Assembly: GCA_017643495.1 (NCBI GenBank)
Contig: JAEPNK010000002.1
Location: 1,240,001-1,304,000 of the forward strand
Source: Rhizobiaceae bacterium
GTDB taxonomy: Bacteria > Pseudomonadota > Alphaproteobacteria > Rhizobiales > Rhizobiaceae
Direction: 5' to 3'
DNA length: 64,000 nt
Of the stretch, positions 14,169 through 32,763 are shown one piece after another. The translations under genes and the position numbers were made by a program. Position 1 is the first letter of the stretch. Every line of letters starts with the position of its first letter. The notes beneath the pieces were generated by a model that ran no database searches, was not told the DNA's origin, and was given only the letters and a program-made list of their open reading frames with translations.

Positions 14169-15440
14169 ATGAACAAGCATGTTGAAGCAATGCTCAATTC
14201 AAACCAGAGCAAGCATAAGGTTACAAACGAATCTTCTTCCAAGATCGTACCGATGCCCGGCAAGACCGCTGATGTGGTTTCGAACGCCCCCAAGGCAGCG
14301 AAAAACGCACTGCGTCTTACCTTTCGAAAGCCGAAACTGCTCTTCCGGAAAATGGTTCTGGCCTCTTTTCTGCTGCTCGTTCTGCTTCCCGGCGCATTGG
14401 GAAGCATCTATTTTCTGATGATTGCTTCCGACCGCTATGTCTCAAGCGCAGGTTTTTCAGTCAGAACCCTCGAAGGCGGGGCAATCAGCACGGATTTCCT
14501 TGGCGCACTGACCGGAGCCAGCACATCCGGCAGTACCACAACGGATTCCTATATCATCATGCGGTATCTGGAGAGCCGGGAACTGCTGGAAAAACTGATC
14601 AACGAGGCGGATTTTCTCAACGCCTACAGTGCTGACCATGCCGATTTTTTCTACCGTCTCGATCCCGAGGACCCGATCGAAGACATTCTCGAATACTGGG
14701 AATGGATGATTGAGCCTTCCTATGACAACACATCAGGCCTGATCGAGTTTCAGGTTGAGGCATTCACGAGGGAAGATGCTCTCAAGGTCGCCAACCTTGT
14801 TGTCAAATACAGTCAGGAACTGGTCAATGAACTGTCCGACCAGGCCCGGCGGGATGCCGTTGCCTTTTCAAAGGAAGAAGTCGCAAAGGCGGAACTTCGC
14901 CTGAAATTCATTCGCAACAAGCTGCGTGAATTCCGCTCCGAGACCAAAGCGGTTGATCCGGAATCTTCGGCCGGTGCCCAGGTATCGCTGACGACGGAAC
15001 TTGAACAGCAGCTTATCTCCCTGAATGCCCGTCTGACTGCTGCGCGAAACGGCCAGCTTGACGAGGATTCACCCACGGTTCGTGAACTGAAACGCCAGAT
15101 CAAGGCACTCGAGGAGCAACTGGTCCTGAAAAAGGCGGAAATTGAATCAAGTGGTTCCGGTGCCAGCCTTTCAGAAATTCTGTCTGACTTTGAACGTTTG
15201 CAGGTTGATCTCGAATTCGCACAACAGGCCTATACAGCGGCCATGTCGTCACTCGAACGCTCCCGCATAGACGCCGACCGGCAGCAACGCTTCCTTGCAG
15301 TTTATCAAAAACCGTCACTCGCACAGGATGCGATCTACCCGACCCGCATTTTGAACAGCATTCTGGTCTTCGTAATTTGCCTGATGTTGTGGTCCATAGG
15401 CCTGTTGCTGGTCAATTCGGTCAGGGATCATATTCGGTAA
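14169..15440 (+). CDS. kpsE: Capsule polysaccharide export inner-membrane protein, KpsE/CtrB-like
   Basis: 423 residues from the ATG at 14169; an upstream frame to 14082 is open. There is a cytoplasmic N-terminus, a membrane segment at about 63-86, and a large periplasmic part with SDRYVSSAGFSVR and coiled-coil stretches (about 225-330). A second membrane segment lies near the C-terminus (SILVFVICLMLWSIGLLLV). This matches the polysaccharide copolymerase (PCP-3) family that links the inner-membrane ABC exporter to the outer-membrane channel of group 2 capsules. kpsM and kpsT follow directly. No outer-membrane Wza/KpsD-like gene is seen in the window. Confidence 0.85.
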   Translation: MNKHVEAMLNSNQSKHKVTNESSSKIVPMPGKTADVVSNAPKAAKNALRLTFRKPKLLFRKMVLASFLLLVLLPGALGSIYFLMIASDRYVSSAGFSVRTLEGGAISTDFLGALTGASTSGSTTTDSYIIMRYLESRELLEKLINEADFLNAYSADHADFFYRLDPEDPIEDILEYWEWMIEPSYDNTSGLIEFQVEAFTREDALKVANLVVKYSQELVNELSDQARRDAVAFSKEEVAKAELRLKFIRNKLREFRSETKAVDPESSAGAQVSLTTELEQQLISLNARLTAARNGQLDEDSPTVRELKRQIKALEEQLVLKKAEIESSGSGASLSEILSDFERLQVDLEFAQQAYTAAMSSLERSRIDADRQQRFLAVYQKPSLAQDAIYPTRILNSILVFVICLMLWSIGLLLVNSVRDHIR

Positions 15441-15458
15441 GGCTGGCCCTCGAACATC

Positions 15459-16250
15459 ATGGCAAGCGCGCGATACAGATTTGACGAAAACCCGTTGACC
15501 GTGCAGTCGCGCGTTATCTGGGCCCTGATCCTTCGTGAAACACGGGTGACTTTCGGTAATGCCCAACTCGGATATCTCTGGGCAATAGCAAACCCCATAC
15601 TGACCACCACAATCATGGTGCTGATCTTTTCCTTCATCAGCCGGATGCCGCCAATCGGCACCAGTTTCATCCTGTTTTTTGCAACCGGGATCATACCTTT
15701 CGAGATGTACAACAAGCTCGCGAATTCGCTGATGGCCGTCTTTACACAGAACAAGGGCTTGATGACGTATCCTCTCGTCAAGGAAACCGATGCCGTGTTT
15801 GCCAGATACCTGCTCGTGATCGCGACCTATTTCCTCGTCCTGCTGGTATTCTTCTCAACCTTGATCATAACCGGGTTTGCACCCTGGCCTCACAATCCCG
15901 GCAGTGCGATTGCCGCAATTTTCTGTCTTTCCCTGTTCGGTTTGGGAGTTGGGGTGACCAATGCAGTTGTAAAGTGCCTCTGGGGTACCTGGCCACAAAT
16001 TTACGGAATCATATCAAGACCGCTGTTTTTCATTTCCGGGATATTTTTCATTCCAACCACTTTCCCGCCCTATATAACAGATTGGTTGGCATGGAATCCC
16101 TTGCTACACTTCATTGATTGGTTCCGTGCCGCATATTACATCAACTATGAAAGTGTGATTTTTGACGGTCCGTTCCTGTTCTACGTGACAACGGGCCTCT
16201 TGCTTACAGGTTTTGGCGGTGCACGACTGTTCAGGAAAAAACTGGCCTGA
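15459..16250 (+). CDS. kpsM: Capsule polysaccharide ABC transporter permease, KpsM-like
   Basis: 263 residues with the six hydrophobic segments of an ABC-2 permease. The cytoplasmic entry is VIWALILRETRVTFGNAQLGYLWAI, typical of KpsM/BexB. It forms the inner-membrane pore with the KpsT ATPase and moves lipid-linked polysaccharide to the periplasm. It begins 18 bases after kpsE and stops 5 bases before kpsT, so it is a single operon. Confidence 0.92.
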   Translation: MASARYRFDENPLTVQSRVIWALILRETRVTFGNAQLGYLWAIANPILTTTIMVLIFSFISRMPPIGTSFILFFATGIIPFEMYNKLANSLMAVFTQNKGLMTYPLVKETDAVFARYLLVIATYFLVLLVFFSTLIITGFAPWPHNPGSAIAAIFCLSLFGLGVGVTNAVVKCLWGTWPQIYGIISRPLFFISGIFFIPTTFPPYITDWLAWNPLLHFIDWFRAAYYINYESVIFDGPFLFYVTTGLLLTGFGGARLFRKKLA

Positions 16251-19677: not shown

Positions 19678-20865
19678 TCAAAGAACGGGCAGCTCTGATG
19701 GTGCGCGAGCCGTGATAAGTTCCGCGCCACCGGAACGCACAATGATGTTTTCCTCATGCACCATCATCAGCTCGTCTCCGTAGGAAACTGACGGTTCAAT
19801 GGTCAGCACCATGTTCTCCTCAAGCACTTTTCGCTCAAAACCTGCAAGTGAGGGCTGTTCGGTCAGTTGCATACCGAGCCCGTGACCAAGCCGGCCAATG
19901 TCACCCCCAGCATCACCCAGTTCTGCAAGCACCCTGGACATGGCATGAAAAACGTCACTGCAGGTATTCCCCGGGCGGGCCGCTACAATACCTGCATCGG
20001 TTGCCCGCCAGAGAACATCATGGGCCCGTTTGGCCGGATCACCCGCATGACCGATAGCCCAGTTGCGGTCAAAATCGCAATAATAACCGTCCCAGGTACA
20101 ACCGGTATCCAGCATCAAGACGTCCCCGTTTTCCAACGGACGGCGGGAAGGCGGGGAAATAACATCGGTATAGCCACCCGGACCGGCACCTCCCACGAGA
20201 TAAGGCACATCATCGGCTCCTGTGGCGAGTGCAAGCCGGCGAAACTCGCGGAAAACTTCCTCCAGCGGAAACCCGTTCCCTGCAATTTCCGGAACCCTGG
20301 CAAAGGTTGCTGAACCGATTGCACAAATATGGCGCAGTTTTTCCAGTTCGGCTTCCGACTTCACCATCCGCAAACCCTGAACCAACCCGGTCACATCAAT
20401 GATCTCGAGTCCGGGCAAGGCTTTGGTTAAACGTTCCCAGTCTCCCAGCGGCATGCGCAGACCGGTTTCATGCCCCTTCATGATGCCAAGTCCTGCTTTC
20501 GCATTTGCAAGTGGCGTCAACAATTCGGTCAGCAGACTGATCCCGTCATCCTGTGGTGCGGGCGCGCTCCAACTGCGAATGTCTTCGATCCACGTCTTGC
20601 GCATCAGGTCTGCGCCAATTTCCGGAATGATCGCAACCGGCTTGCCATCAACAGGCACATATACAAACCACGGACGGGTGGGGCTTTGCCAAAAGAGTGT
20701 ATGGAAGCCGGTGAAATAGCGCACCTCCGGCTCACTCATCAAAAGGAGGCCGGAAACCCCTTGTGCCGCCATGAGTGCCTGCGCATTTTTCAACCGCATG
20801 ACAAACTCGGCTTCTTCAAAGCCCCGCGAGAGCATGGACGGCATCAGGGAAAGTTCAGCATCCAT
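19678..20865 (-). CDS. M24-family metallopeptidase (Xaa-Pro aminopeptidase/creatinase-like)
   Basis: 395 residues from the ATG at 20865, which is spaced nine bases from GGGGAG; an ATG at 20874 touches that site and is unlikely. It has the N-terminal creatinase domain and a pita-bread catalytic domain. Metal ligands are visible: Asp in LMLDTGCTW, Asp in CDFDRNW, His in LGHGLG, Glu in TIEPS and Glu in HEENI. The family includes prolidases, aminopeptidase P, creatinase and ectoine hydrolase; the exact substrate cannot be told here. It is a single gene between galE (convergent) and the exported-protein operon (same strand). Confidence 0.85.
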   Translation of the reverse strand: MDAELSLMPSMLSRGFEEAEFVMRLKNAQALMAAQGVSGLLLMSEPEVRYFTGFHTLFWQSPTRPWFVYVPVDGKPVAIIPEIGADLMRKTWIEDIRSWSAPAPQDDGISLLTELLTPLANAKAGLGIMKGHETGLRMPLGDWERLTKALPGLEIIDVTGLVQGLRMVKSEAELEKLRHICAIGSATFARVPEIAGNGFPLEEVFREFRRLALATGADDVPYLVGGAGPGGYTDVISPPSRRPLENGDVLMLDTGCTWDGYYCDFDRNWAIGHAGDPAKRAHDVLWRATDAGIVAARPGNTCSDVFHAMSRVLAELGDAGGDIGRLGHGLGMQLTEQPSLAGFERKVLEENMVLTIEPSVSYGDELMMVHEENIIVRSGGAELITARAPSELPVL

Positions 20866-20925
20866 GTTTTGCATCTCCCCTTTGATTGCAGCTCGTCATG
20901 GCCAAGTTCCTGTTATGTCGTGATG

Positions 20926-23841
20926 TTACCACTCACATATTTTCTTGAGCTGGGCGACACTTTCGCGTCCCTCAGATGGACAGGAAAGGTAAGAACTGCA
21001 ACAGCGGGCCGAGCATCGCAGGAAATTGTCCGGCGCCCGCTTGAGTTCTTCAAACTGGATTGCCTGTTGGGAGAGCGCCCCGCAAGAACATGAACACGCG
21101 CTGTTCGATCCGGCACCAGCCTGTGATTGAGGAACCGTAATCTTGTTCTCGATTATTCTGCCAAACGGATCAGCTTCTTTACCGCGGTATTCAAACTGCT
21201 GCTCATTTCGCCACCGCTCAAGGTAAAAAGCCTGCGTTTTTGTTTCGACAAGCTCTCGCCTGCTGTCCCAGGTAAAATATTCAAGCGCGGGCAGTACCAC
21301 TTCAAAATTGCGATTGGCACCGTCATCAGAAGTGATGACAAAGCGCAGTCTCACCCAATCATCACCGCGTTCCAGAACGTCAACACTCCCGCGTTCCAGC
21401 GTCTCGCCAAGTCCTATATGCGAGAGCGATGTATGGGTAACTTTGTGAACCTGAAGCGGGTAGCGGCTTCCAATCGAAAGCTCTCCCCACCTTTTGGGGC
21501 GAAAGCCTTTCCAGCGTTCACCTTCAAATTCGGAAAAGAAGACAAAGTACTCCACTTCACCTTCCTTGGAGGCACTCGGATCATCGTCATTGAACCCGTT
21601 GCAATAGCCATATTCCGACGTTTCCAGGGAAAACCCCAGCACCACATCATCCTGGTCACGGAAAGCATCTATCCGTCGTCCCGTTTCCTCATTGGCCAAT
21701 AGCGGGTTGGCGAACTGCTCAAGCATTCTCACATCATGCTGGTAAACACCCGCAGCAACAGTGAAATGAAGGGCACCGCCACTTCTGCCAGCCATTTCCG
21801 AGCGTTTGACATTCTGACCGATAAAGGGTGAGCGCTCCCTGCCAAGCTCACTGTTCGGGTCGGAGCGGATGTCATCCGGAAAATCAAACGCGTTCCAGTC
21901 CGCCACGCCAAAAGACCGCGTGATCGCGTTGATGCGGGCAATCCGTGTCATTGCCATTGCTTCATCACAGGGAGAAACTTCTGGCACCGGTTTCGGTTCA
22001 ATGTTTTGCGCAAGTTCAACAGGTGTTTTGTCGAGATCGGCAACCAGCCGCAATGAAGTGCTTACCCGCACTTTTGCGTCAGACAAACGTGTATAGGCCT
22101 CCCGTGCTTGCGGCCCGAAACGGGTATCACGTGTAGGCACATACGCAAGAACTGCAGATGTTGTCACCGAGTTTCTCAACATCGGTGTGGGCAAGGTCCA
22201 GCGGACTACATATCGTCCGTTTGCCTGCCTGATCGGACCATCGCGTACCGGCATGCAATGCTTGCTCGCCTTTTCAATCGACTCATCTTTCAGGGCATCA
22301 AGCGTCGCTGCGCAGGAAAAAAGCCTCTTCTCAGGATCCCATGGTTTGGCAATACCGAAATCGATCTCAATACTTTTTGCCTTGCTGGTTTCAGCCTCCT
22401 GCTTGTTTTCGGGATGGGGCGGCACTCCCTCCATCACCTGGACAATGCCGAGATGCAAACCGTCTGCCTCCCTCAAGGACCGGGCCGAGGCTTCAATGTA
22501 AATCTGGGCATGGACATTGTTCTGCTCTGCCCGGTCATCTTCAATTGCAATATCCAGGCAGCGGACACCATAGGGGACAATGTCTACCTGTTTACGTTTC
22601 ACAGGCTCTGACGCGCTCAACTCACGCAACTGGCAACTGGCAATGTAATCACGCCAGATATGACCGGGTGGGGAAGGTTCGGTTTCAAGTCTTGTTCGCC
22701 CGTCAAAGGACGTATCCGGCCATGAAGCGATGTCGGCATAAGCAAGTGTCAGGGTCGGACCAAGCGGCCCGGTTCCCAGCATCAGTCCCAGCTTTTGTTC
22801 AAACCAGCGCACAATATCACGGTCCGAAGCCGGATGACTGGCATCGTCTGGACTGAAAAATGCGTTGTGCAACAACACCGACCCGTCAAGATATCGCTCG
22901 GACAAATGGCGGAAGAAAGAACTGGTCTGGTAGGCGATTGACGGATTGAAGAAACCTTGCCGGTAGGCCGCCCATCCATGATACTTGGCATACTGGCTTG
23001 CCGTAAGGCCCGAACCCAGAACCCGGTCTTTCCAGATGTCACGGATCGGGTAACGCATCTTTTCACCCTTGAGCAGGTGCCAGCGTATATAGCTGTTTTT
23101 GACAAAATCTGCCAAGCCTTCAAACAGGAAGGGTGCACGGCTGTACACATTTCTCGGGTCGCAAGCGGTGGCATAACCGGCGGCTTGGTAAAATGCACTG
23201 TCCTGAATTGCGTGGCTCAGTTCATGCGCAAATATGCCCTGAAGGGCCCATTGCGGAACAACTGTCTCATCAGCCAGAATTGTCTCGGCCGGTCGGTCCG
23301 TTACGTCATCGGGCTTTTTGCCGTCTTTGTCTTTTGGAAATTCACGCTTTTCGTCATCGGGAACATTCCACTGCAATGCAACAGCCTTTCCCTCGCTGAG
23401 ATTTTCTCTGCAGGAAAGTTCCTGTGCAATTGCATTGTCGAGCTTTCCGGTAAACACCAGCAACGATTCAGTTGAGCCGGAAGCATTGGGTGTAACCACC
23501 GGACCCAGCAGTTCAGGGCTTGGTAAACCCTGCTTCTCTAGCCAGTGCATGGCGTCCCGGCCAGCCTTCTCTATGCGCGGACCATTGGTCACGTCCCATT
23601 GCGGGCAATCTTTATTGTCGCGTTTACTGTTGTCAGGATCCATGCACGTAAGTGTAATGTTTTTAGGAGACCAGCCTGCGATGGTTTTCCACCCGCCGGC
23701 AGGCACGCCATACTTGCTTGGCACGTGACCGGCATTAGGCTCCAGCTTGAGCAATTCGTGGGAGAATGCTGAATGGGTCAAAACCATCATGCAGGCCAAC
23801 AAACCGGAGACGGAAAGTCCCAACGGGTTCAAAAATCTCAT
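20926..23841 (-). CDS. Exported zinc metallopeptidase of unknown family
   Basis: About 971 residues. The start is the ATG at 23841, with AGGAGAAC upstream and a signal peptide directly after it (LNPLGLSVSGLLACMMVL, then SAFS-H). Its ATG overlaps the preceding stop (ATGA). The zinc motif HELSH is at 206-210, with a likely third ligand Glu at 241 in LFEGLADF, a gluzincin layout. The remaining 700 residues are beta-rich and unrecognised, ending in a Cys-rich stretch (CSCSCG and CSARCC). It would act in the periplasm or outside the cell. It is the last gene of a four-gene operon with VWA and beta-sandwich proteins, which may be partners or substrates. Confidence 0.6.
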   Translation of the reverse strand: MRFLNPLGLSVSGLLACMMVLTHSAFSHELLKLEPNAGHVPSKYGVPAGGWKTIAGWSPKNITLTCMDPDNSKRDNKDCPQWDVTNGPRIEKAGRDAMHWLEKQGLPSPELLGPVVTPNASGSTESLLVFTGKLDNAIAQELSCRENLSEGKAVALQWNVPDDEKREFPKDKDGKKPDDVTDRPAETILADETVVPQWALQGIFAHELSHAIQDSAFYQAAGYATACDPRNVYSRAPFLFEGLADFVKNSYIRWHLLKGEKMRYPIRDIWKDRVLGSGLTASQYAKYHGWAAYRQGFFNPSIAYQTSSFFRHLSERYLDGSVLLHNAFFSPDDASHPASDRDIVRWFEQKLGLMLGTGPLGPTLTLAYADIASWPDTSFDGRTRLETEPSPPGHIWRDYIASCQLRELSASEPVKRKQVDIVPYGVRCLDIAIEDDRAEQNNVHAQIYIEASARSLREADGLHLGIVQVMEGVPPHPENKQEAETSKAKSIEIDFGIAKPWDPEKRLFSCAATLDALKDESIEKASKHCMPVRDGPIRQANGRYVVRWTLPTPMLRNSVTTSAVLAYVPTRDTRFGPQAREAYTRLSDAKVRVSTSLRLVADLDKTPVELAQNIEPKPVPEVSPCDEAMAMTRIARINAITRSFGVADWNAFDFPDDIRSDPNSELGRERSPFIGQNVKRSEMAGRSGGALHFTVAAGVYQHDVRMLEQFANPLLANEETGRRIDAFRDQDDVVLGFSLETSEYGYCNGFNDDDPSASKEGEVEYFVFFSEFEGERWKGFRPKRWGELSIGSRYPLQVHKVTHTSLSHIGLGETLERGSVDVLERGDDWVRLRFVITSDDGANRNFEVVLPALEYFTWDSRRELVETKTQAFYLERWRNEQQFEYRGKEADPFGRIIENKITVPQSQAGAGSNSACSCSCGALSQQAIQFEELKRAPDNFLRCSARCCSSYLSCPSEGRESVAQLKKICEW

Positions 23842-24623
23842 TGCTGTTCTCCTGAAAGCGGCTTCAGCAATGGACCACCGGGCTTGAACACCGGTTCCCC
23901 GCTTTCCGCAGTATTTGCTGCACAATCCCCATCTGCCATCACCTTCACTTCCTGTTCGGCAATCGGCCGGTACACCGCCATGCTTGACTGGGTGAAGTAA
24001 CCGAGACGGTAGATGCCAGGTTCATCCGGCACATCAATAAAGACTGTGGAGGGGCTTTCTGCATTCAGTGTCTTGATGACGCTTGGCTGCACATATCCGT
24101 TATGCGGAGAGGCTGTGGCGTTTGTCGGCAAAAGCTCCAGCCTGTCAAACCGGGATCTGGGCCCCTTGAAGCGAACCGGGAACTGCTTCTCGCAAAGACC
24201 GACTTCCGTCGGCGCAAGCAGTTTTGCCAGCGGGGCAACAACCTCGATTGTTGCAGCCACACCGTTATTGCCGTCATGAACCTGATACCTGCCTGCCACG
24301 GGAGGCGCCTGAAAGCGATAGAGGGTCCTGTCAGCCTCCTCGGTTGTTTCAACTGGAGGAAAGGTCAGCAGCGTCCCGCCCAGGTTTTTCATCTTGAGCG
24401 TCAGCCCGGCATTGTTGTCCGCTGACAAGTCAAACATCTCGCCAGCCGGAATGCGCAAGACCTCTGTTCCGGAGCGGTCGCCAGCAATTTGGTTGTCCGC
24501 CTTCTCAGCCTCCTTGAAAAGGTCCACGCTTTGGGCAATGGCGTTGTCACATACACCAATTGCCAAGACCACAAGCCCGAGACGAGAGACCCGTCTTGAG
24601 AAAGTGGCGAAGCGGGCCCGCAA
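23838..24623 (-). CDS. Predicted exported protein, beta-sandwich type, unknown function
   Basis: I place the start at a TTG (24623-24621), because it lies six bases after GGGAGG and one base after the stop of the upstream gene, giving 261 residues. Upstream ATGs would overlap the VWA gene by about 70 bases. The TTG start gives a basic N-terminus and a hydrophobic segment (RLGLVVLAIGVCDNAIAQ), a signal peptide. The mature part has alternating short strands (GRYQVHDG, GIYRLGYF) like an Ig-like or beta-sandwich repeat. No catalytic motif is seen. The stop overlaps the metallopeptidase start, so production of the two is coupled. Confidence 0.6.
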   Translation of the reverse strand: MRARFATFSRRVSRLGLVVLAIGVCDNAIAQSVDLFKEAEKADNQIAGDRSGTEVLRIPAGEMFDLSADNNAGLTLKMKNLGGTLLTFPPVETTEEADRTLYRFQAPPVAGRYQVHDGNNGVAATIEVVAPLAKLLAPTEVGLCEKQFPVRFKGPRSRFDRLELLPTNATASPHNGYVQPSVIKTLNAESPSTVFIDVPDEPGIYRLGYFTQSSMAVYRPIAEQEVKVMADGDCAANTAESGEPVFKPGGPLLKPLSGEQQ

Positions 24624-24624
24624 T

Positions 24625-26628
24625 TCAGCCTCCCTGCGGAGGCACTTCAATCGCAAACCGGTCGAGTTCGAATATGCCTTCATGTGAACGCGCACGCTTG
24701 GACTGGCCGACGAGGAAAGCCGGTTTGCCTGAAAGTCGCAGCATGGAAACAGGTTCCGTGGCCTTGGTCATTCTTGTGGATGGCTCGCCTTCGGCACCGG
24801 GAACATCCATCGAAAACTCTGCCGTTATTTCACGACCTCGCCGTTTCAGCCTTACTGTAGCACCATTCTCCACAAGGGACTGGAGGATCAGGTCAGCATG
24901 TGCCCGCCCCTTCTTGCTGCAGATGCCATCCGTGAAAGGGCCATCGAACAGGTTGTCCGTGAAAAGTTTGCGTGTGACATCGCCTTCCGTTCCACTGTCC
25001 TGCACGAGTGAAAGCTTGATGGTTGAACCGCAACCTTGTGTCTCTATCCACGCGACGGCAGAAACCTGGTTGAATGCATCCGTAAACAGCGACACGGAAA
25101 CCTGTTCTGCCAGTGATTGCATGTCGTGGCTGAACTCAAGAACGAGATCAAAATCGCCGTCAGGCAACGGTGTATCGACCACATGCCGGTTGCTGGCATC
25201 AGCCGCATCATAGCGGGGTGCGCCGGCGACCGAGACAAAGCGCGTACCCTGGCCGGTAAACGTGACATACTCGGGCACCGGGTTCTCAACCATGATTGCA
25301 GGGTCAAGATCCGGACCGTCAAACAATTCCTCGAAAACCGCTGTTGCAGTTTCGGGCTCGGGTGGTGCCGGTGGGGGTGGCGGTGGTGGAGGGGCGCTTG
25401 CTTCTTCAACTGCATCATTTACCGCCTGGACAAATTCATCTGCCGTATTTGCGTTGAAATACCGGCCATTGCCATTGTCGGCTATACATTGAAGCGCCGC
25501 TGCTTCCTGTTCACTCAGATCAAACCCGACAACATGAACACGGGTATCAATTCCGCGGGCCGCAAGTTGTGCAGCCGCAGCGCACGGATCCCCGCCACAG
25601 GTTTCCAGGCCGTCGGAAATCAAAAGGATGCTTGAAGGACGCTCTGCAACGGAAAGAACTTCCCCGGCTTCCATCAGTGAACGGGCGATCGGCGTTTTGC
25701 CGCGCGGCGTGATGTTGTTGATTGCGGCCTGTATGTTGCCCAGCGCATGATTGCCGGGCTGAAGGATCATCTCGGTGTCACCGCAATCACCCTCCCGCCT
25801 GTGGCCATAGACCATCAGCCCGATATTCCTCTGCCCGTGCAGATCGGAAACCAGTCCGGAAAGAGCGGTTTTGGCGGTACTGATTTTGGCTACACCGTTA
25901 AGCTGGCCCCACATGGAGCCGGAACCATCCAGCATGAACAGGATGTCGGATGAAGAGGGTGCCGAAACAGCATTACCAGCTCCGGCAGTTCCGGACGGGG
26001 CAGAAGCAGGATTGCTGCCGGATGAAGTGTTTTGCGCAGTGTTGAAGCCGGGCGTATCTCCCTGCTCCATGCCGATGTTTTCTTCGTTTGAACCGCCTGG
26101 CTGCTGATTGTACAGCGTCACATCATTGCTTCCCGTCGGGCGGCCAACAAAATTCTGGCTGAGACGTGCCAGGGACCAGCCATTCGCCTCGGAATAAATG
26201 TCGTTTATCTGCCAGTCATTGTGCGGCGGCACCTTGACCAAAGTATAGAGCAGACGTTGGGGCTGGCCGAAATTGGTAAAACTTGCCACGATCTGGGCAG
26301 CGCCGCGCAAGACGGGCGTCTGGGGATCGGGACCAATGCTGATATTGCGGATATCAGCATCCTGCGCATCAAAAACCGGATCAAAACCGAGCTTTCCCTG
26401 CAATCCCGGCACGGCATAACTGTCTACAAAATAAAGCATTGTCGCATCCGGGTCGTTCAACACCGGAGGCCTGCCTGAATTGAAGCGGTCCAGATGGTCA
26501 AACATCATGGATTCCACCAGATCGGTTGCCTGCTCAAGATTGTCCTGCGCATGCACAGGTGCAAATGCCAGCCCGCCAAACAGGAAGACGGCCAGCAATC
26601 CTTTCACCAGCCTTGCTGAAAATGTCAT
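24625..26628 (-). CDS. Exported von Willebrand factor A domain protein
   Basis: About 667 residues from the ATG at 26628, preceded by AGGAGAGG; a signal peptide follows (LVKGLLAVFLFGGLAFAPVHAQ). Residues about 30-160 resemble an NTF2-like/DUF3828-type module ending DWQINDIYSEANGWSL. The VWA domain (about 226-420) has an intact MIDAS: DGSGS at 234-238, Thr312 and Asp339. A proline run near 440 links it to a C-terminal beta-sandwich (about 465-660). Both flanking modules resemble those of the neighbouring 477-residue protein, so this gene looks like the same architecture with a VWA insertion. VWA domains bind ligands through a metal; the likely partners are the other exported products of the operon. 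Confidence 0.75.
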   Translation of the reverse strand: MTFSARLVKGLLAVFLFGGLAFAPVHAQDNLEQATDLVESMMFDHLDRFNSGRPPVLNDPDATMLYFVDSYAVPGLQGKLGFDPVFDAQDADIRNISIGPDPQTPVLRGAAQIVASFTNFGQPQRLLYTLVKVPPHNDWQINDIYSEANGWSLARLSQNFVGRPTGSNDVTLYNQQPGGSNEENIGMEQGDTPGFNTAQNTSSGSNPASAPSGTAGAGNAVSAPSSSDILFMLDGSGSMWGQLNGVAKISTAKTALSGLVSDLHGQRNIGLMVYGHRREGDCGDTEMILQPGNHALGNIQAAINNITPRGKTPIARSLMEAGEVLSVAERPSSILLISDGLETCGGDPCAAAAQLAARGIDTRVHVVGFDLSEQEAAALQCIADNGNGRYFNANTADEFVQAVNDAVEEASAPPPPPPPPAPPEPETATAVFEELFDGPDLDPAIMVENPVPEYVTFTGQGTRFVSVAGAPRYDAADASNRHVVDTPLPDGDFDLVLEFSHDMQSLAEQVSVSLFTDAFNQVSAVAWIETQGCGSTIKLSLVQDSGTEGDVTRKLFTDNLFDGPFTDGICSKKGRAHADLILQSLVENGATVRLKRRGREITAEFSMDVPGAEGEPSTRMTKATEPVSMLRLSGKPAFLVGQSKRARSHEGIFELDRFAIEVPPQGG

Positions 26629-26677
26629 CGCTACCTCTCCTCTGGTTGTGCGAATGGTTCCACGATAGGGGATGTTG

Positions 26678-28111
26678 TTACTGTGCATTTGGAATCAGCT
26701 CGAACCGGTCAAAATATGCAACGGTTTCGCCACTCTTGGCGCCTCTAAGCTGTCCGAGTTGAAAAGCCGGTGCACCAAACGGTTCGATCCGGCTGACACT
26801 GTCCGTTTCGATTGTAGCGGGACCTCCCGGCTCGTCACCTGCAGCAGGTACATTGAGAGCAAGTGAACCACTGTAGCGGAACCCTTCCCGCTTGAGAGTC
26901 AGTTCAAAACCCTGGTTTTCCAGCTCCGCCAAAATCCGGTCACCCAGTCCGCGTCCCATCTCGCTTTTCGAGCAGACACTTCTGACAATGCTTTTGTCAA
27001 AGAGGTTTTTGGTAAACGATGTTCGTACCGGTTTTTCCTGCGAGGCCACCATTCTTTCATTGACGATGTCGAGATAAAGGGTTGGTCCGCAGCCGGTAGT
27101 CTGGACACGCAAGGTCAATGCCACATAGTCATTGTCATTGGCGTGCATTCCCAGCCACACGGTCTCATAGCCGGTCTTGGCTTCAAGCCTGCCTTTCAAG
27201 CGCATCGTGAAATCACCGGCACCGGCAAATTCGCCATGCTTGAACAGATTGGTGGATTCAGGGTTTTCAAACCCGGCTTTGTCGCCCGTCGCAATCGCCA
27301 GAATGGCACCTTTTTCAAGCAGGAAACTGTTCAGGTCTTCATTCACGATCTGCCAGCCGCCGCCAAGCTTGCTTCCATCGAATTCTTCCTCGACTGCTGC
27401 AATGCCCGGCACCTGGGCCTGTCCGGCATTATTGTCGGCCCCGTCATTGTTCGCGGTTTCATCCGCTTTCGTTTCTTCGCCGGTTTCGGCATCTGCTGCA
27501 CCGGAACCAGCCGATCCATCCGTATTGGTTGTCGCATTACCGGCAGCAGCTTCACCAAACAGGTCTTCACCTGACGAGTTTCCAGAACCGCCGCCATGAC
27601 GAACCGCAATTTCGGCAAGGTTCCAGTCCTGTCCGCTGATTGCCGATATCCTTTGCTGATCGCCGTCATAGAAATTGACAGTAAGTGAAACAATCCTTGC
27701 CGGGCCGCCTGAACGTACTGCGACTTCGATCGTAACGCCCTGGTCCGGCTGGTTTCCCGCAACCCGGGTCTGGAACGCATCGATCTTCTCCGGAGCAGCG
27801 CCTGTAAGCAGGTCGAACTCACCGGATACCAGTTCGCCGGTTTCCGCAATTTCCGGCTGAAAGAATGTGGATCGCAATTCGGCATTTTTCCAGATGCCGC
27901 CAAGTCCCGCATCCCTCAAGGATTTGTGCGCGCTGTAAAGTGATTGCACAAACCCGAGGGCAAGCGCTTCAGTCTGATTCTGTGCATTTGCAGGAGCCGG
28001 GCCGGAAAGCACCAGTGTGAAACAGGCCAGCATCAAAAGTGAGCATCTTTGCAACACGCGCAATTGTGTTGCCAGACCCTGAAATCTCAAGGCCATCATC
28101 CAGTTAGACAT
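26678..28111 (-). CDS. Exported protein with DUF3828-like and LamG-like modules
   Basis: 477 residues; AGGAGG upstream of the ATG at 28111. An N-terminal hydrophobic segment (about 22-43, ending ANAQNQ) is a signal peptide. The N-terminal module (about 45-170) ends in GQDWNLAEI, and an acidic Ala/Asn/Gly-rich linker follows (about 175-235). The C-terminal module (about 240-475) contains LTLRVQTTGCGPTLYLDIV, NLFDKS and SVCSKSE, which line up with matching stretches of the VWA protein (STIKLSLV, NLFDGP and GICSKKG). The C-terminal module is probably a concanavalin/laminin-G-like carbohydrate-binding fold. It is first in the four-gene operon. Confidence 0.6.
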   Translation of the reverse strand: MSNWMMALRFQGLATQLRVLQRCSLLMLACFTLVLSGPAPANAQNQTEALALGFVQSLYSAHKSLRDAGLGGIWKNAELRSTFFQPEIAETGELVSGEFDLLTGAAPEKIDAFQTRVAGNQPDQGVTIEVAVRSGGPARIVSLTVNFYDGDQQRISAISGQDWNLAEIAVRHGGGSGNSSGEDLFGEAAAGNATTNTDGSAGSGAADAETGEETKADETANNDGADNNAGQAQVPGIAAVEEEFDGSKLGGGWQIVNEDLNSFLLEKGAILAIATGDKAGFENPESTNLFKHGEFAGAGDFTMRLKGRLEAKTGYETVWLGMHANDNDYVALTLRVQTTGCGPTLYLDIVNERMVASQEKPVRTSFTKNLFDKSIVRSVCSKSEMGRGLGDRILAELENQGFELTLKREGFRYSGSLALNVPAAGDEPGGPATIETDSVSRIEPFGAPAFQLGQLRGAKSGETVAYFDRFELIPNAQ

Positions 28112-28511: not shown

Positions 28512-29636
28512 TTGTCTTTTTCCTTGAATGCAGTTTTTACAGCCGCCCTGTTGACCAGCCTCACATTTGTCGCCCCTGCCCTTGCCCAGGAAGGCAGGCC
28601 GCCGGCTGCGGTGACCGTACAGTCCCTTGAACCCCAATCCGTTGTGCTCAGTTCAACCCTGCCCGGAAGGGTCCGCGCCTCCGCTGAAGCAGAAGTTCGG
28701 CCACAGGTTAACGGCATTATCACGGAACGCCTTTTCACCCAGGGCTCGAAAGTGAAAATGGGAGAGGTTCTCTACAAGATTGATCCCGGTTCGTACAAAG
28801 CCGCTGTATCGCAGGCACAGGCCAGTGTGCGGCAGGCAGAAGCATTGCTGAAGGCTGCCGAACGGGAAGCCACCCGCGTATCCACATTGCTCGAACGCGG
28901 CATCAGCAGTGCGGCAACAACAGACAATGCGATTTCGGAACGCGATTCGGCCGCAGCCTCGCTCGAACTGGCAAAGGCCCAGCTTGAATCTGCACAACTG
29001 GAACTCGACCGTACTGAAATTCGCGCCCGTCTGTCGGGTGAAATCGGCTTCTCACAAGCCAGCAAGGGTGCCCTTGTGACAGCCAGTCAGGCAACCCCCA
29101 TGGCGGTAATCCGCAACATCGACCCTGTTTATGTCGACGTCACCCAGTCAGCAGCAGAAATGATCGAGTGGCGGCGTCATCAGGCAAGTTCAAAAAGCCC
29201 TCCTCCCCGCGAGGTGCGGCTGACACTTGCCGACGGGTCCTCCTACGACCATACCGGAGAACTGACCGCAGCCGAACCATACGTGAACGAGGAAACCGGC
29301 GTGGTTGCGCTGCGTCTGGAGTTTGCCAACCCGGACGGACTGCTTCTTCCGGGAATGTATGTACAGGTTGAGATGCCGACCGGTTCAATGGACGGGGTGT
29401 ATCTCGTTCCCCAGCAAGGGGTCTCGCGCGACCGGCGCGGCAATCCGACAGCGCTGGTTGTCAACCAGGACAATGTAGTGGAGCAGCGCCAGTTGACAGT
29501 CCTGCAGGAACGCGGGTCGGACTGGATTGTGAGTGACGGCATCAAGTCTGGTGACCGCGTCATTCTTGAAGGCCTGCAAAAAGTTTCACCCGGTGCGACC
29601 GTCACGCCGGAAGAAAAAACAGTCACGGGAGACTGA
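28512..29636 (+). CDS. RND efflux periplasmic adaptor (AcrA/MexA-like)
   Basis: 374 residues. The start is a TTG at 28512 (a TTG at 28524 is also possible), because an in-frame TAG lies at 28497-28499 and no ATG precedes the signal peptide (VFTAALLTSLTFVAPALAQ). It contains the HlyD/AcrA lipoyl half-motifs, the alpha-hairpin (QAQASVRQAEALLKAAEREA, then SLELAKAQLESAQLELD) and the beta-barrel LDRTEIRARLSGEIGF. It connects the inner-membrane pump to an outer-membrane channel. The pump gene follows after four bases. There is no N-terminal lipobox Cys, unlike AcrA of enterobacteria. Confidence 0.92.
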   Translation: MSFSLNAVFTAALLTSLTFVAPALAQEGRPPAAVTVQSLEPQSVVLSSTLPGRVRASAEAEVRPQVNGIITERLFTQGSKVKMGEVLYKIDPGSYKAAVSQAQASVRQAEALLKAAEREATRVSTLLERGISSAATTDNAISERDSAAASLELAKAQLESAQLELDRTEIRARLSGEIGFSQASKGALVTASQATPMAVIRNIDPVYVDVTQSAAEMIEWRRHQASSKSPPPREVRLTLADGSSYDHTGELTAAEPYVNEETGVVALRLEFANPDGLLLPGMYVQVEMPTGSMDGVYLVPQQGVSRDRRGNPTALVVNQDNVVEQRQLTVLQERGSDWIVSDGIKSGDRVILEGLQKVSPGATVTPEEKTVTGD

Positions 29637-29640
29637 CCGG

Positions 29641-32600
29641 ATGGCAAGGTTTTTTATTGACCGCCCGGTATTTGCCTGGGTTGTTTCCATATTGATCATG
29701 GGGATCGGCTTCCTGTCGATCCTCACATTGCCGGTTGCCCAGTATCCGACAATTGCGCCACCCTCTATTTCTGTGAACGCCACCTATCCCGGCGCATCTG
29801 CCCAGACGGTGGCAAACACGGTTACCCAGTTGATCGAGCAGCAGATGACCGGGCTCGACGGGCTGCGCTATTTCAGTTCGAACTCCGCCTCAAACGGTTC
29901 CTCGCAGGTAACCCTGACATTCGAGACGGGAACAGATGCGGATATCGCGCAGGTTCAGGTCCAAAACAAGCTGGCCCAGGCAACACCCCTGCTGCCCGAA
30001 CCCGTGCAACGCCAGGGCATCAGCGTCCGAAAGTCGTCCGCCGGCTTTCTCATGGTTATCGCCCTCATTTCCAAAGACGGGAAACTGAACCAGGTTGACC
30101 TGTCGGACTATCTCAGCAGTAACCTGGTTGATGAGTTCAGCAGGATCAGCGGCGTTGGCGAGGTTCGTGTATTCGGCTCTAAATATGCCATGCGCATCTG
30201 GATCGATCCGGCAAAACTCGCCGCCTACAAACTCGCACCATCAGATGTGGTTTCTGCGGTATCAGCAGAAAATGCGCAGGTTTCCGCAGGTTCGTTTGGC
30301 AGCCTTCCCTCTCCCGAGGGGCAACAGCTGAATGCGACCATTACTGCCCAGTCCCTGTTGCAGTCACCGGAAGATTTTGAACAGATCGTCCTGCGTGCCG
30401 AAACAGATGGCGGCCTTGTCCTTTTGCGGGATGTGGCACGGGTGGAGATCGGGGCGGAAAACTACACGACAATCGCCAAATACAACCGCCAGCCGTCCTC
30501 CGGCATGGCCATCCAGCTGGCATCGGGCGCGAATGCCCTGCAGGTATCGGATGCAGTAAGGGCAAAAATTGAAGAACTTTCAGAGTTCTTCCCCGAGGGC
30601 GTCGAATATACCATTCCGTATGACACGACACCGTTCGTCCGCATTTCAATCGAAGAGGTCATAAAAACCCTGTTCGAGGCAATCGGGCTGGTCTTCCTGG
30701 TCATGTTGCTGTTTCTGCAAAACCTTCGTGCCACCCTGATTACCACGCTGGTGGTGCCGGTCGTCCTGCTTGGCACATTCGGCGTTCTTGCTGCAGCCGG
30801 CCTCAGCATCAACACACTGACCATGCTTGCCATGGTACTGGCCATCGGTTTGCTTGTGGATGATGCCATTGTGGTTGTCGAAAATGTCGAGCGGCTGATT
30901 CACGAGGAGGGGCTGGAACCGCGGGAAGCAACGCGAAAATCGATGGACCAGATCACGAGCGCACTAATCGGCATTGCGATGGTGCTCTCCGTGGTGTTCG
31001 TCCCGATGGCATTTTTCGGCGGCTCAACCGGCGTCATCTACCGTCAGTTCTCAATCACCATTATTTCCGCGATGGCGCTCTCGGTCATCGTTGCCCTTTC
31101 GCTGACACCGGCACTTTGTGCAACCTTCCTGAAACCCAAGAAAAACCACGACAGCAAAAAAGGGTTTTTCGGACTGTTCAACAGGGGTTTCGAGGCAACA
31201 CAGAACGGTTACACTTCGCTGGTCAGGTGGATCATCCGCAGTCTGTTTCTTGCCGGCCTTGCCTATTTCGCACTGGTTGGCGCCATGGGCTGGATGTTCA
31301 ACAAGACGCCCACCGGCTTCCTGCCCAATGAGGACCAGGGCATCATGTTCACATTGATCCAGGCTCCAACCGGTGCCACAGCCGAACGCACACGCAAATC
31401 AGTGGCAAAGGTCGAGGATTATTTCCTCAACCAGGAATCCGAAAATGTAGCCTCGATATTCGGCATTGTCGGATTCAGTTTTGCCGGCAGCGGACAGAAC
31501 ACAGGTCTCGCCTTTGTCCGGCTCAAGGATTGGGATGAGCGGCAGCGCCCGGACCAGTCGGCACAAGCCATTGCAGGCCGGGCTTTCGGAGCCCTTTCGC
31601 AAATCCGGGATGCCACGATATTCCCGATCGTGCCGCCTCCTGTTCTGGAACTCGGCAATGTCGACGGGTTTGATTTTTATCTTCAGGCACGTGCCGGCCA
31701 GACCCAAGACGAGTTGCTGCAGGCGCGCAACCAGCTATTGGGCATGGCAGCCCAAAGCCCGCTCATAGCATCGGCCCGGCCCAACGGTCTGGAAGATGCT
31801 GCCCAGTACAATCTCGACATTGACTGGCGGGCCGCCGGGGCGCTCGGCATTACTGCAGTTGACGTCTCACAACTGCTGTCCATCGCCTGGGCCGGTTCCT
31901 ATGTGAATGACTTCATAGACCAGGGCAAGATCAAGCGCGTTTACATACAGGGCGAAGCAGATGCGAGGTCCGGACCGGAAGATTTCAGCAAGTGGCGCGT
32001 GCGCAATGCCACAGGCGGACTTGTTCCCTTTGCCAACTTTGCAACCGGTAGCTGGAACTACGGCCCACAGGGGTTGTATCGCTATGGTGGCATTCCCTCC
32101 ATGCAGATCCAGGGTTCACCGGCCCCCGGTGTCTCGACAGGTGAAGCAATGGCGGAAATGGAACGGCTGGTATCCCAACTTCCGTCCGGTTACCAGATAG
32201 CCTGGACCGGTCTTTCACTCGAAGAACGCGATTCCGGCAATCAGGCTCCGATGCTTTTCGCCCTGTCCATCGCGGCAGTGTTTCTCTGTCTGGCTGCATT
32301 GTATGAAAGCTGGACCATTCCCTTCGCAGTCATGTTGGCCTTGCCGATCGGTGTGTTCGGCGCCCTGATCGGCGCCTGGCTGGGCAATTTCGAAAACGGT
32401 GTGTTTTTCCAGGTGGGACTGCTGACCGTTATCGGCCTAACCGGGAAAAACGCAATTTTGATTGTGGAGTTCGCGCGCGACAAGCTGAATGACGGAATAC
32501 CGTTGCTTACCGCAACAAGGGAAGCAGCCCACCAGCGCTTCCGCCCGATTGTCATGACATCCATGGCATTCTCACTCGGTGTCCTGCCACTTGTACTGAG

Positions 32601-32763
32601 TACCGGCGCAGGATCAGGCGGGCGCAATGCAATCGGCGCAGCCGTGCTTGGCGGAACCCTGTCCGCGACCATTCTGGGCGTTCTTTTCGTGCCGCTCTTC
32701 TTCACCATTGTCGTGCGGCTGTTCTCTCGCGCAAAACTCTCCGAACAATCAGGTACAACATAA
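29641..32763 (+). CDS. RND multidrug efflux pump, AcrB/MexB-like (HAE1)
   Basis: 1040 residues from the ATG at 29641 (GGGAGA upstream), close to the normal length of about 1045; the frame opens earlier inside the adaptor gene. It begins MARFFIDRPVFAWVV, typical of HAE1 pumps. Proton-relay residues are present: the Asp pair in GLLVDDAIVVVEN (transmembrane helix 4) and Lys in GLTGKNAILIVEFA (helix 10). It exports hydrophobic compounds across both membranes by proton exchange, with the adaptor and a TolC-type channel. No TolC gene lies next to it. A terminator follows. Confidence 0.96.
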   Translation: MARFFIDRPVFAWVVSILIMGIGFLSILTLPVAQYPTIAPPSISVNATYPGASAQTVANTVTQLIEQQMTGLDGLRYFSSNSASNGSSQVTLTFETGTDADIAQVQVQNKLAQATPLLPEPVQRQGISVRKSSAGFLMVIALISKDGKLNQVDLSDYLSSNLVDEFSRISGVGEVRVFGSKYAMRIWIDPAKLAAYKLAPSDVVSAVSAENAQVSAGSFGSLPSPEGQQLNATITAQSLLQSPEDFEQIVLRAETDGGLVLLRDVARVEIGAENYTTIAKYNRQPSSGMAIQLASGANALQVSDAVRAKIEELSEFFPEGVEYTIPYDTTPFVRISIEEVIKTLFEAIGLVFLVMLLFLQNLRATLITTLVVPVVLLGTFGVLAAAGLSINTLTMLAMVLAIGLLVDDAIVVVENVERLIHEEGLEPREATRKSMDQITSALIGIAMVLSVVFVPMAFFGGSTGVIYRQFSITIISAMALSVIVALSLTPALCATFLKPKKNHDSKKGFFGLFNRGFEATQNGYTSLVRWIIRSLFLAGLAYFALVGAMGWMFNKTPTGFLPNEDQGIMFTLIQAPTGATAERTRKSVAKVEDYFLNQESENVASIFGIVGFSFAGSGQNTGLAFVRLKDWDERQRPDQSAQAIAGRAFGALSQIRDATIFPIVPPPVLELGNVDGFDFYLQARAGQTQDELLQARNQLLGMAAQSPLIASARPNGLEDAAQYNLDIDWRAAGALGITAVDVSQLLSIAWAGSYVNDFIDQGKIKRVYIQGEADARSGPEDFSKWRVRNATGGLVPFANFATGSWNYGPQGLYRYGGIPSMQIQGSPAPGVSTGEAMAEMERLVSQLPSGYQIAWTGLSLEERDSGNQAPMLFALSIAAVFLCLAALYESWTIPFAVMLALPIGVFGALIGAWLGNFENGVFFQVGLLTVIGLTGKNAILIVEFARDKLNDGIPLLTATREAAHQRFRPIVMTSMAFSLGVLPLVLSTGAGSGGRNAIGAAVLGGTLSATILGVLFVPLFFTIVVRLFSRAKLSEQSGTT

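What the first reader, a model, noticed from the sequence alone, without database searches (positions are those of the whole stretch)
20926..28111. Four-gene exported operon: paralogous sensors, VWA domain, beta-sandwich protein and HELSH metallopeptidase
All four products have signal peptides, and the last three genes are joined by stop/start contacts. The first two share N- and C-terminal modules, and one has a VWA domain with intact MIDAS inserted between them. The last is a large gluzincin-like peptidase of no known family. This reads as a self-contained periplasmic or surface system that I cannot match to any described one.
Basis: partly seen in the sequence, partly recalled or inferred. 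Interest (0 to 1): 0.75.

Follow-up and report, generated by a model that had tools for sequence, protein, structure and literature searches.

The report
Exported VWA–lectin-like–metallopeptidase four-gene operon
Four exported bacterial proteins, including a metal-dependent grip domain and a large probable protein-cutting enzyme of no named family, travel together as a rare conserved gene set that probably catches and trims other proteins in the cell envelope or just outside it.

Summary
The minus strand at 20926-28111 carries four tightly packed genes with export leaders. g1 and g2 are paralogues; g2 has a VWA domain with intact MIDAS inserted between the shared modules. g3 is a small two-module, probably Ig-like protein. 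g4 is a 971-aa protein with HELSH, a downstream EGxA glutamate and a Cys-rich tail. The four genes recur in the same order in Ahrensia marina and two distant members of the order (g4 29-31% identical): 4 of 4 confirmed g4 genomes. Flanks differ, so the set is a unit, though rare. Apart from VWA, no Pfam, NCBIfam or PADLOC match, nor a PDB profile search, names it.

It is not fully isolated. The g1-g2 pair also occurs without g3-g4 in Hyphomicrobiales, often beside a divergent LemA and a LemA-partner gene. The g1/g2 C-terminal module is weakly concanavalin-A-like; repeats resembling g3 are fused to a VWA in a related locus. 'Sensors' is unsupported.

Best mechanism (inferred): an extracytoplasmic 'capture-and-cut' assembly in which VWA holds a peptide, lectin-like modules dock, and g4 cleaves. 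Structure prediction failed, so folds and function are unproven. New variant of a known kind; moderate interest.

The parts
26678..28111 (-). g1: exported 477-aa protein, N-terminal module + linker + C-terminal ConA-like module
   Evidence: conserved in A. marina (81%) and two distant genomes (34% each)
27608..27985 (-). g1 N-terminal module (possibly NTF2-like)
   Evidence: weak DUF3828 (1 of 15 members, E 0.0086) and PDB 2qgu (E 0.024) similarity
26681..27403 (-). g1 C-terminal module, possibly a concanavalin-A-like beta-sandwich
   Evidence: GH43_C2 in 7 of 33 members (best E 0.0023), 3keto-disac_hyd in 1 of 33 (E 6e-6); the window's g1 copy itself matched no family
24625..26688 (-). g2: exported VWA protein, ORF 687 aa; likely start ATG 26628 (667 aa)
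   Evidence: 90, 48 and 52% identity to A. marina, G136, G298
25432..25947 (-). VWA domain of g2 with intact MIDAS (DGSGS at 25915-25929)
24628..25344 (-). g2 C-terminal module, paralogous to that of g1
23838..24623 (-). g3: exported 261-aa protein of two probable Ig-like modules; likely TTG start
   Evidence: hhalign to the repeats behind the VWA of a protein in L064, 82% over 53 columns (module 2) and 67% over 36 columns (module 1), five shuffles each at 0.5% or less; 'Ig-like' is my reading, no fold was obtained
20926..23841 (-). g4: exported 971-aa gluzincin-like metallopeptidase
   Evidence: in the same order in 4 of 4 genomes
23212..23226 (-). HELSH zinc-binding motif of g4; presumed third ligand Glu codon at 23119-23121
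   Evidence: HExxH and EGxA invariant in 4 of 4
20929..21159 (-). C-terminal Cys-rich tail of g4 (eight Cys invariant in 4 of 4)
   Evidence: no Pfam or PDB match

Best explanation
An exported protein assembly that captures and cuts other proteins in the periplasm or at the cell surface. Shown: four co-directional, tightly packed genes under purifying selection, with order kept across distant genomes; export-type leaders; intact MIDAS; HExxH...E; g1 and g2 paralogous. Inferred: g1 and g2 sit together, dock to glycan or envelope material through their ConA-like C-terminal modules and assemble through their N-terminal modules; the MIDAS of g2 grips an acidic side chain or peptide of a client protein; g3, a detached module of the kind fused to a VWA protein elsewhere, bridges g2 and g4; g4, a zinc gluzincin with a probably disulphide-rich tail, cleaves the held client. 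In related loci a LemA and its partner probably supply the inner-membrane side; the window lacks them nearby. Client unknown.
For: Four-gene order in 4 of 4 confirmed g4 genomes. g4 not found without the set: confirmed in 3 of 397 order genomes (a fourth, weak, stop-bearing match in G336 has no hit to any of the four profiles in its 18-kb neighbourhood and is doubtful); 1 of 61 relatives and 1 of 385 class genomes, the own one each time. Catalytic and MIDAS residues invariant. VWA MIDAS domains generally bind extended peptides (passages of PMC7159879). Gluzincin-type core suggested by hhalign to two Peptidase_MA_2 proteins (56%, ten shuffles at 0.5% or less; one of the two is above the family cut-off, and both were picked by the HExxH/EGxA motif, so the shared motif carries much of the score). 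g3-like repeats fused to VWA in L064. A divergent LemA at VWA loci.
Against: No structure: both AlphaFold models failed (pLDDT 29.8 and 32.4). No physical interaction shown. The HExxH-to-E spacing (29-30) is longer than in the two Peptidase_MA_2 proteins compared (21 and 15). The gluzincin assignment is below every family cut-off, and the ConA one rests on a minority of homologues, not on the window's own g1 copy. g1-g2 exist without g4, so cleavage cannot be the pair's general role. Leaders were judged without a predictor, and g1 and g4 may be lipoproteins.
Confidence: 0.38

Rival explanations
1. An extracellular scavenging system: g4 is a secreted digestive protease and g1/g2 are glycan- or particle-binding adhesins that hold it on algal or detrital material, so the VWA is an adhesion domain rather than a client-capture device.
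For: ConA-like hints, VWA as an adhesion fold (established knowledge), a probably marine close relative (A. marina; habitat recalled from its name), no membrane helix after the leader in any of the four, patchy distribution.
Against: No outer-membrane secretion gene among the four; the g1-g2 pair lies near LemA and its partner gene in 5 of 8 loci, which suits an envelope role better. Neighbourhoods were not annotated systematically for carbohydrate-active genes.
Confidence: 0.25
2. An envelope-processing or remodelling complex of the LemA-linked VWA group, in which g4 matures or trims one dedicated envelope protein, with g1/g2 as structural subunits and proteolysis secondary.
For: Six of seven weaker-scoring (divergent) LemA copies in 16 genomes lie at VWA loci, none of 13 strong ones; in G136 the operon itself carries a truncated lemA and a LemA-partner gene between g2 and g3; MamQ, a LemA-family protein, is required for wild-type-like magnetosome membranes (passages of PMC4902198).
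Against: The window genome's only LemA is unlinked (G000:C10); L009 and L011 have the four genes and no LemA match nearby, and G298 has no LemA hit at all (89% complete).
Confidence: 0.22
3. A contact- or competitor-directed system (defence or antagonism) using a secreted metallopeptidase effector and VWA/lectin recognition modules.
For: Patchy distribution; transposase/integrase genes near both sides of the operon in G136.
Against: No PADLOC match, no toxin-family Pfam match among the four, no sign of fast evolution of g4 (dN/dS 0.12).
Confidence: 0.07

Closest known systems
LemA-linked VWA gene clusters of Hyphomicrobiales (found here in L046-L049 and L064; not found described in my paper searches)
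   Same: homologous g1 and g2 (L046-L049), or VWA-CTD and VWA-repeat proteins (L064)
   Different: no g4 or g3 profile match in L046-L049; L064 has g3-like repeats fused to a VWA; the window lacks a linked LemA
Peptidase MA clan gluzincins (Peptidase_MA_2 PF13485, M61 PF05299)
   Same: HExxH and a downstream Glu in an EGxA motif; weak profile similarity (M61 E 0.087 in 1 of 4 members)
   Different: below every family cut-off, longer HExxH-to-Glu spacing, about 510 further residues and a Cys-rich tail
MoxR-vWA ternary systems (PMC7159879, passages seen)
   Same: VWA with MIDAS, thought to capture a peptide
   Different: AAA+ ATPase partner there; here all four exported and no AAA+ among them
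Concanavalin-A-like domains (GH43_C2, 3-keto-disaccharide hydrolase)
   Same: weak family matches of some homologues of the g1/g2 C-terminal module
   Different: no glycosidase family match in g1-g4

Membership tests
VWA domain (MIDAS type) | Profile match above cut-off | tested here: met
   PF00092 44.9 bits, cut-off 23.8
VWA domain (MIDAS type) | DxSxS, T and D metal-site residues | tested here: met
   invariant in 4 of 4; motif rule recalled
Gluzincin (MA clan) metallopeptidase | HExxH plus downstream Glu ligand | tested here: met
   motifs invariant in 4 of 4; the ligand role of the Glu is inferred
Gluzincin (MA clan) metallopeptidase | Fold of the clan | tested here: inconclusive
   hhalign 56% to two PF13485 proteins; structure model unusable; no PDB hit
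Peptidase M61 / Peptidase_MA_2 | Score above the family cut-off | tested here: not met
   no hit for the window's g4
Concanavalin-A-like lectin/glucanase | Family score or fold match | tested here: inconclusive
   7 of 33 homologues touch GH43_C2 (best E 0.0023) and 1 of 33 3keto-disac_hyd (6e-6), the window's g1 copy none; cut-offs not shown in that table; no fold model
MoxR-vWA ternary system | Linked MoxR AAA+ ATPase | tested here: not met
   none among the four genes or the four flanking genes scanned (M24 peptidase, epimerase, two RND pump genes)
LemA-linked VWA cluster | lemA gene at the locus | tested here: not met
   no LemA match in the window at E 1e-3; the one LemA of the genome is on another contig
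Known defence system | PADLOC profile match | tested here: not met
   0 of 4 proteins at E 0.01
Gluzincin (MA clan) metallopeptidase | Proteolytic activity | not testable with these tools
   needs purified protein

The most novel reading that the evidence does not exclude
g4 founds a new exported gluzincin family that works only as part of an ATP-independent 'capture-and-cut' machine: the MIDAS of g2 selects the client, a detached Ig-like subunit (g3) presents it, and paralogous lectin-like subunits anchor the complex. It would be a derived, protease-armed branch of a wider, undescribed VWA/LemA envelope system.
Probability: 0.25. Interest if true: 0.7.

Novelty: new variant of a known kind. 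Interest (0 to 1): 0.48.

Why it matters
If right, it gives a testable example of an extracytoplasmic VWA domain that feeds clients to a protease without an ATPase, and it ties LemA proteins, whose functions are mostly unknown, to a defined partner set of VWA and lectin-like proteins.

Tried and rejected
Homologue searches in viral contigs (g2 protein, A1, A3) and plasmids (g4) found nothing. AlphaFold models of the first 402 residues of mature g4 and of mature g1 (435 residues), from two-sequence alignments, were unusable, so no fold search was run. PDB profile searches with A1, A3, A4, A7, A8, A9 and A10 gave no credible relative; A2 was not searched. Rejected there: MCM4 for A1 (E 0.12) and a kinesin-light-chain-like TPR protein for A10 (4y6c, E 0.0015, four weak repeat matches, none passing alone). 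PF13485 members: none in 21 relatives, 2 of 200 phylum genomes. The weak g4 match in G336 (E 8.8e-4, with stops) was dropped: no hit to the four profiles in its neighbourhood. Similarity between the g3 modules themselves was weak (12, 5 and 29%), so 'two Ig-like modules' rests on the L064 repeats; the best whole-profile alignment to them (89%) lies in a third module present only in the longer g3 of G136 and G298. My first statement that none of the four has a lipobox was wrong for g1 and g4 and was corrected. 'DUF3137-like' was dropped as a label for the LemA-partner genes of L010 and L046-L049: the true DUF3137 of L064 did not match them. Promoter/terminator scans were uninformative. An empty-site test in same-genus genomes was given up because their best matches to the adjacent efflux adaptor were only 23-30% identical.

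Full report
What is there. The minus strand at 20926-28111 carries four co-directional genes. g1 (26678-28111, 477 aa) is followed by g2 (ORF from ATG 26688; likelier ATG 26628, after GGAG), g3 (likely TTG 24623 after AGGGAGG, one base after the g2 stop) and g4 (ATG 23841, overlapping the g3 stop as ATGA). All four begin with an export-type leader by inspection; no dedicated predictor was available. g1 and g4 have a lipobox-like motif (LMLAC, GLLAC) besides a later AxA/AxS-type site; it is present in 3 of 4 homologues of each and absent in G136, so they may or may not be lipoproteins; g2 and g3 have none in 4 of 4. No transmembrane-like window follows the leader in any of the 16 sequences. The downstream neighbour is an M24 peptidase on the same strand (19678-20874), and upstream an RND efflux pair is divergent.

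Modules. g2 has a VWA domain (PF00092, 1.9e-11) whose MIDAS residues are invariant in 4 of 4 sequences. Outside the VWA, g1 and g2 share a C-terminal module (hhalign 99.9%) and an N-terminal module (90.5%, five shuffles at 0.3% or less). I aligned 33 of 34 copies of the C-terminal module taken from the loci, a truncated one in L064 being left out. Scanned one by one, 7 of 33 touch GH43_C2 (best E 0.0023) and 1 of 33 touches 3keto-disac_hyd (6e-6), both concanavalin-A-like by name or recall; the window's g1 copy matched nothing, and eight other families were touched by 1 or 2 members each. The PDB gave nothing credible. The N-terminal module has only weak NTF2/MlaC-type hints (PDB 2qgu E 0.024; DUF3828 0.0086 and MlaC 0.13, each in 1 of 15; that 2qgu is MlaC-like and that these are NTF2-like folds is recalled). 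g3 matches no family (three weak hits, each in 1 of 4 members), but its second module aligns with tandem repeats behind the VWA domain of a 770-aa protein in L064 (82% over 53 columns; first module 67% over 36 columns; five shuffles each at 0.5% or less). g4 matches no Pfam family whole or in pieces. HE[LM]xHAxQ and EGxA, 29-30 residues apart, are invariant in 4 of 4, and so are eight Cys of its tail. Its core aligns to two Peptidase_MA_2 proteins at 56%, ten shuffles at 0.5% or less; these two were picked by the same motif and one is below the family cut-off. NCBIfam gave Hvo_1808 at E 0.018, far below cut-off, over the same region.

Conservation. One scan of 84,980 species genomes by short peptide patterns, which reaches close relatives only, found Ahrensia marina LZD062 (g4 87%), with all four genes in order. 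Among 397 genomes of the order, g4 matched the own genome, G136 and G298, plus a weak stop-bearing match in G336, where no profile of the four genes hits in the 18 kb fetched. With the alignment, 2 of 10 genomes of the family of G136 matched, the same two, and 1 of 385 class genomes, the own one. None of 60 other relatives, 11 of them same-genus, had it. In G136 and G298 g1, g2, g3 and g4 lie in the same order, so the order holds in 4 of 4. In G136 a 110-aa truncated LemA and a 340-aa partner gene sit between g2 and g3. Flanking genes differ between window, A. marina (iron-type ABC genes by eye; a LuxI-type synthase), G136 (transposase genes) and G298. Between window and A. marina dN/dS is 0.14, 0.06, 0.22 and 0.12 for g1 to g4. 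The set is a conserved but patchy unit.

The wider group. A g1 profile matched 26 of 397 order genomes at E 0.01 and 6 of 289 class genomes at E 0.001, the own genome counted in both. I fetched 20 regions from 19 of the 23 order genomes not already in hand; four were left unread (G049, G085, G135, G172). With window, L009, L010 and L011 that makes 24 loci, of unequal length (7.5-20 kb of each examined for ORFs). Eight have a g1 (N- and C-terminal modules) next to a VWA gene with the C-terminal module: the four g4 loci and L046-L049; in L048 and L049 the VWA gene lacks the N-terminal module. In four more (L051, L053, L055, L057) a C-terminal-module protein without VWA sits beside a VWA-CTD gene. 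A LemA match lies in 5 of the 8 g1-g2 loci (not in window, L009 or L011), in L064, and in 0 of the other 15 loci. A scan of 16 of the 25 non-own matched genomes for LemA found 20 copies in 13 genomes: 13 strong ones (E about 1e-51 or better), none at these loci, and 7 weaker ones, 6 of them at these loci, the seventh elsewhere in G136. Linked LemAs of L046-L049 are 41-98% identical to each other and 30-36% to three free ones, but that of L064 is no closer to the linked ones (27-31%) than to the free ones (28-34%). The gene after the L064 LemA is a true DUF3137 (1.6e-34). The LemA-partner genes of L010 and L046-L049 are related to each other but not detectably to it, and those scanned gave no credible family match (L010; L046 and L048, NCBIfam only; part of L049). 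The window's own genome has one LemA, on another contig.

Mechanism. VWA MIDAS sites mediate binding of extended peptides (PMC7159879, passages). Together with an exported HExxH...E protein found only in company with that VWA protein, possible lectin-like docking modules and a detached Ig-like piece, the most economical reading is capture of a client by g2 and cleavage by g4, outside the cytoplasm. Shown: gene order, motifs, paralogy, selection. Inferred: complex formation, glycan docking, protease activity, client. The LemA link points to the inner-membrane side of the envelope for the wider group; MamQ, a LemA-family protein, acts in magnetosome membrane formation and was the only family member tied to a known process when that paper was written (PMC4902198, passages). 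Against it: no usable structure, weak family assignments, three of eight g1-g2 loci without LemA, and g1-g2 living without g4.

Known or new. Searches of the open full-text library showed nothing on such a set; I saw listings only, apart from the passages of the two papers named. Searched: LemA/DUF3137/VWA (148 papers with two or more terms, 20 listed); von Willebrand/LemA/operon/periplasm (78, 15 listed); DUF3137 (2 papers, one mention each); LemA family/von Willebrand/gene neighbourhood (28, 10 listed); VWA domain/metallopeptidase/Alphaproteobacteria/periplasmic/operon (24, 12 listed); two searches with no paper. Subscription papers are mostly not held, so this is no proof of absence. Built of known domain types in an undescribed combination, it is a new variant of a known kind.

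Noticed in passing
L010:4495-5316 and 14764-15596: An rve-type integrase/transposase gene and an IS4/5-type transposase lie on the two sides of the operon in G136, suggesting mobility.
   Followed up: partly
L010:11038-11370: A LemA gene cut to its C-terminal half (110 aa), start overlapping the g2 stop, sits inside the operon of G136 with a LemA-partner gene after it.
   Followed up: partly
L064:3664-9260: An operon-like LemA - DUF3137 - VWA with tandem repeats - VWA-CTD array in G167; nothing on it appeared in my paper listings.
   Followed up: partly
L009:4823-5437: A LuxI-type autoinducer synthase gene (Autoind_synth 1.1e-16) lies just upstream of the operon in A. marina, divergent from it.
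   Followed up: no
L011:13816-15492; L046:13465-15288; L047:12858-14693: LuxR-type HTH joined to an alpha/beta-hydrolase domain, in two different domain orders, beside g1-g2 loci; the HTH match in L011 is below cut-off.
   Followed up: partly
L046:11688-12785: A 365-aa exported repeat protein follows g2 in G163 where the window has g3; a similar repeat stretch (33% over 198 aa) lies in the G167 locus L047.
   Followed up: no
window 6001-38000: G+C is about 49-57% across this stretch against 38-50% on both sides, so the high G+C is not special to the operon.
   Followed up: no
window 28512-32763: The divergent RND efflux pair next to the operon is also distinctive: the best same-genus matches to its adaptor are only 23-30% identical.
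   Followed up: no
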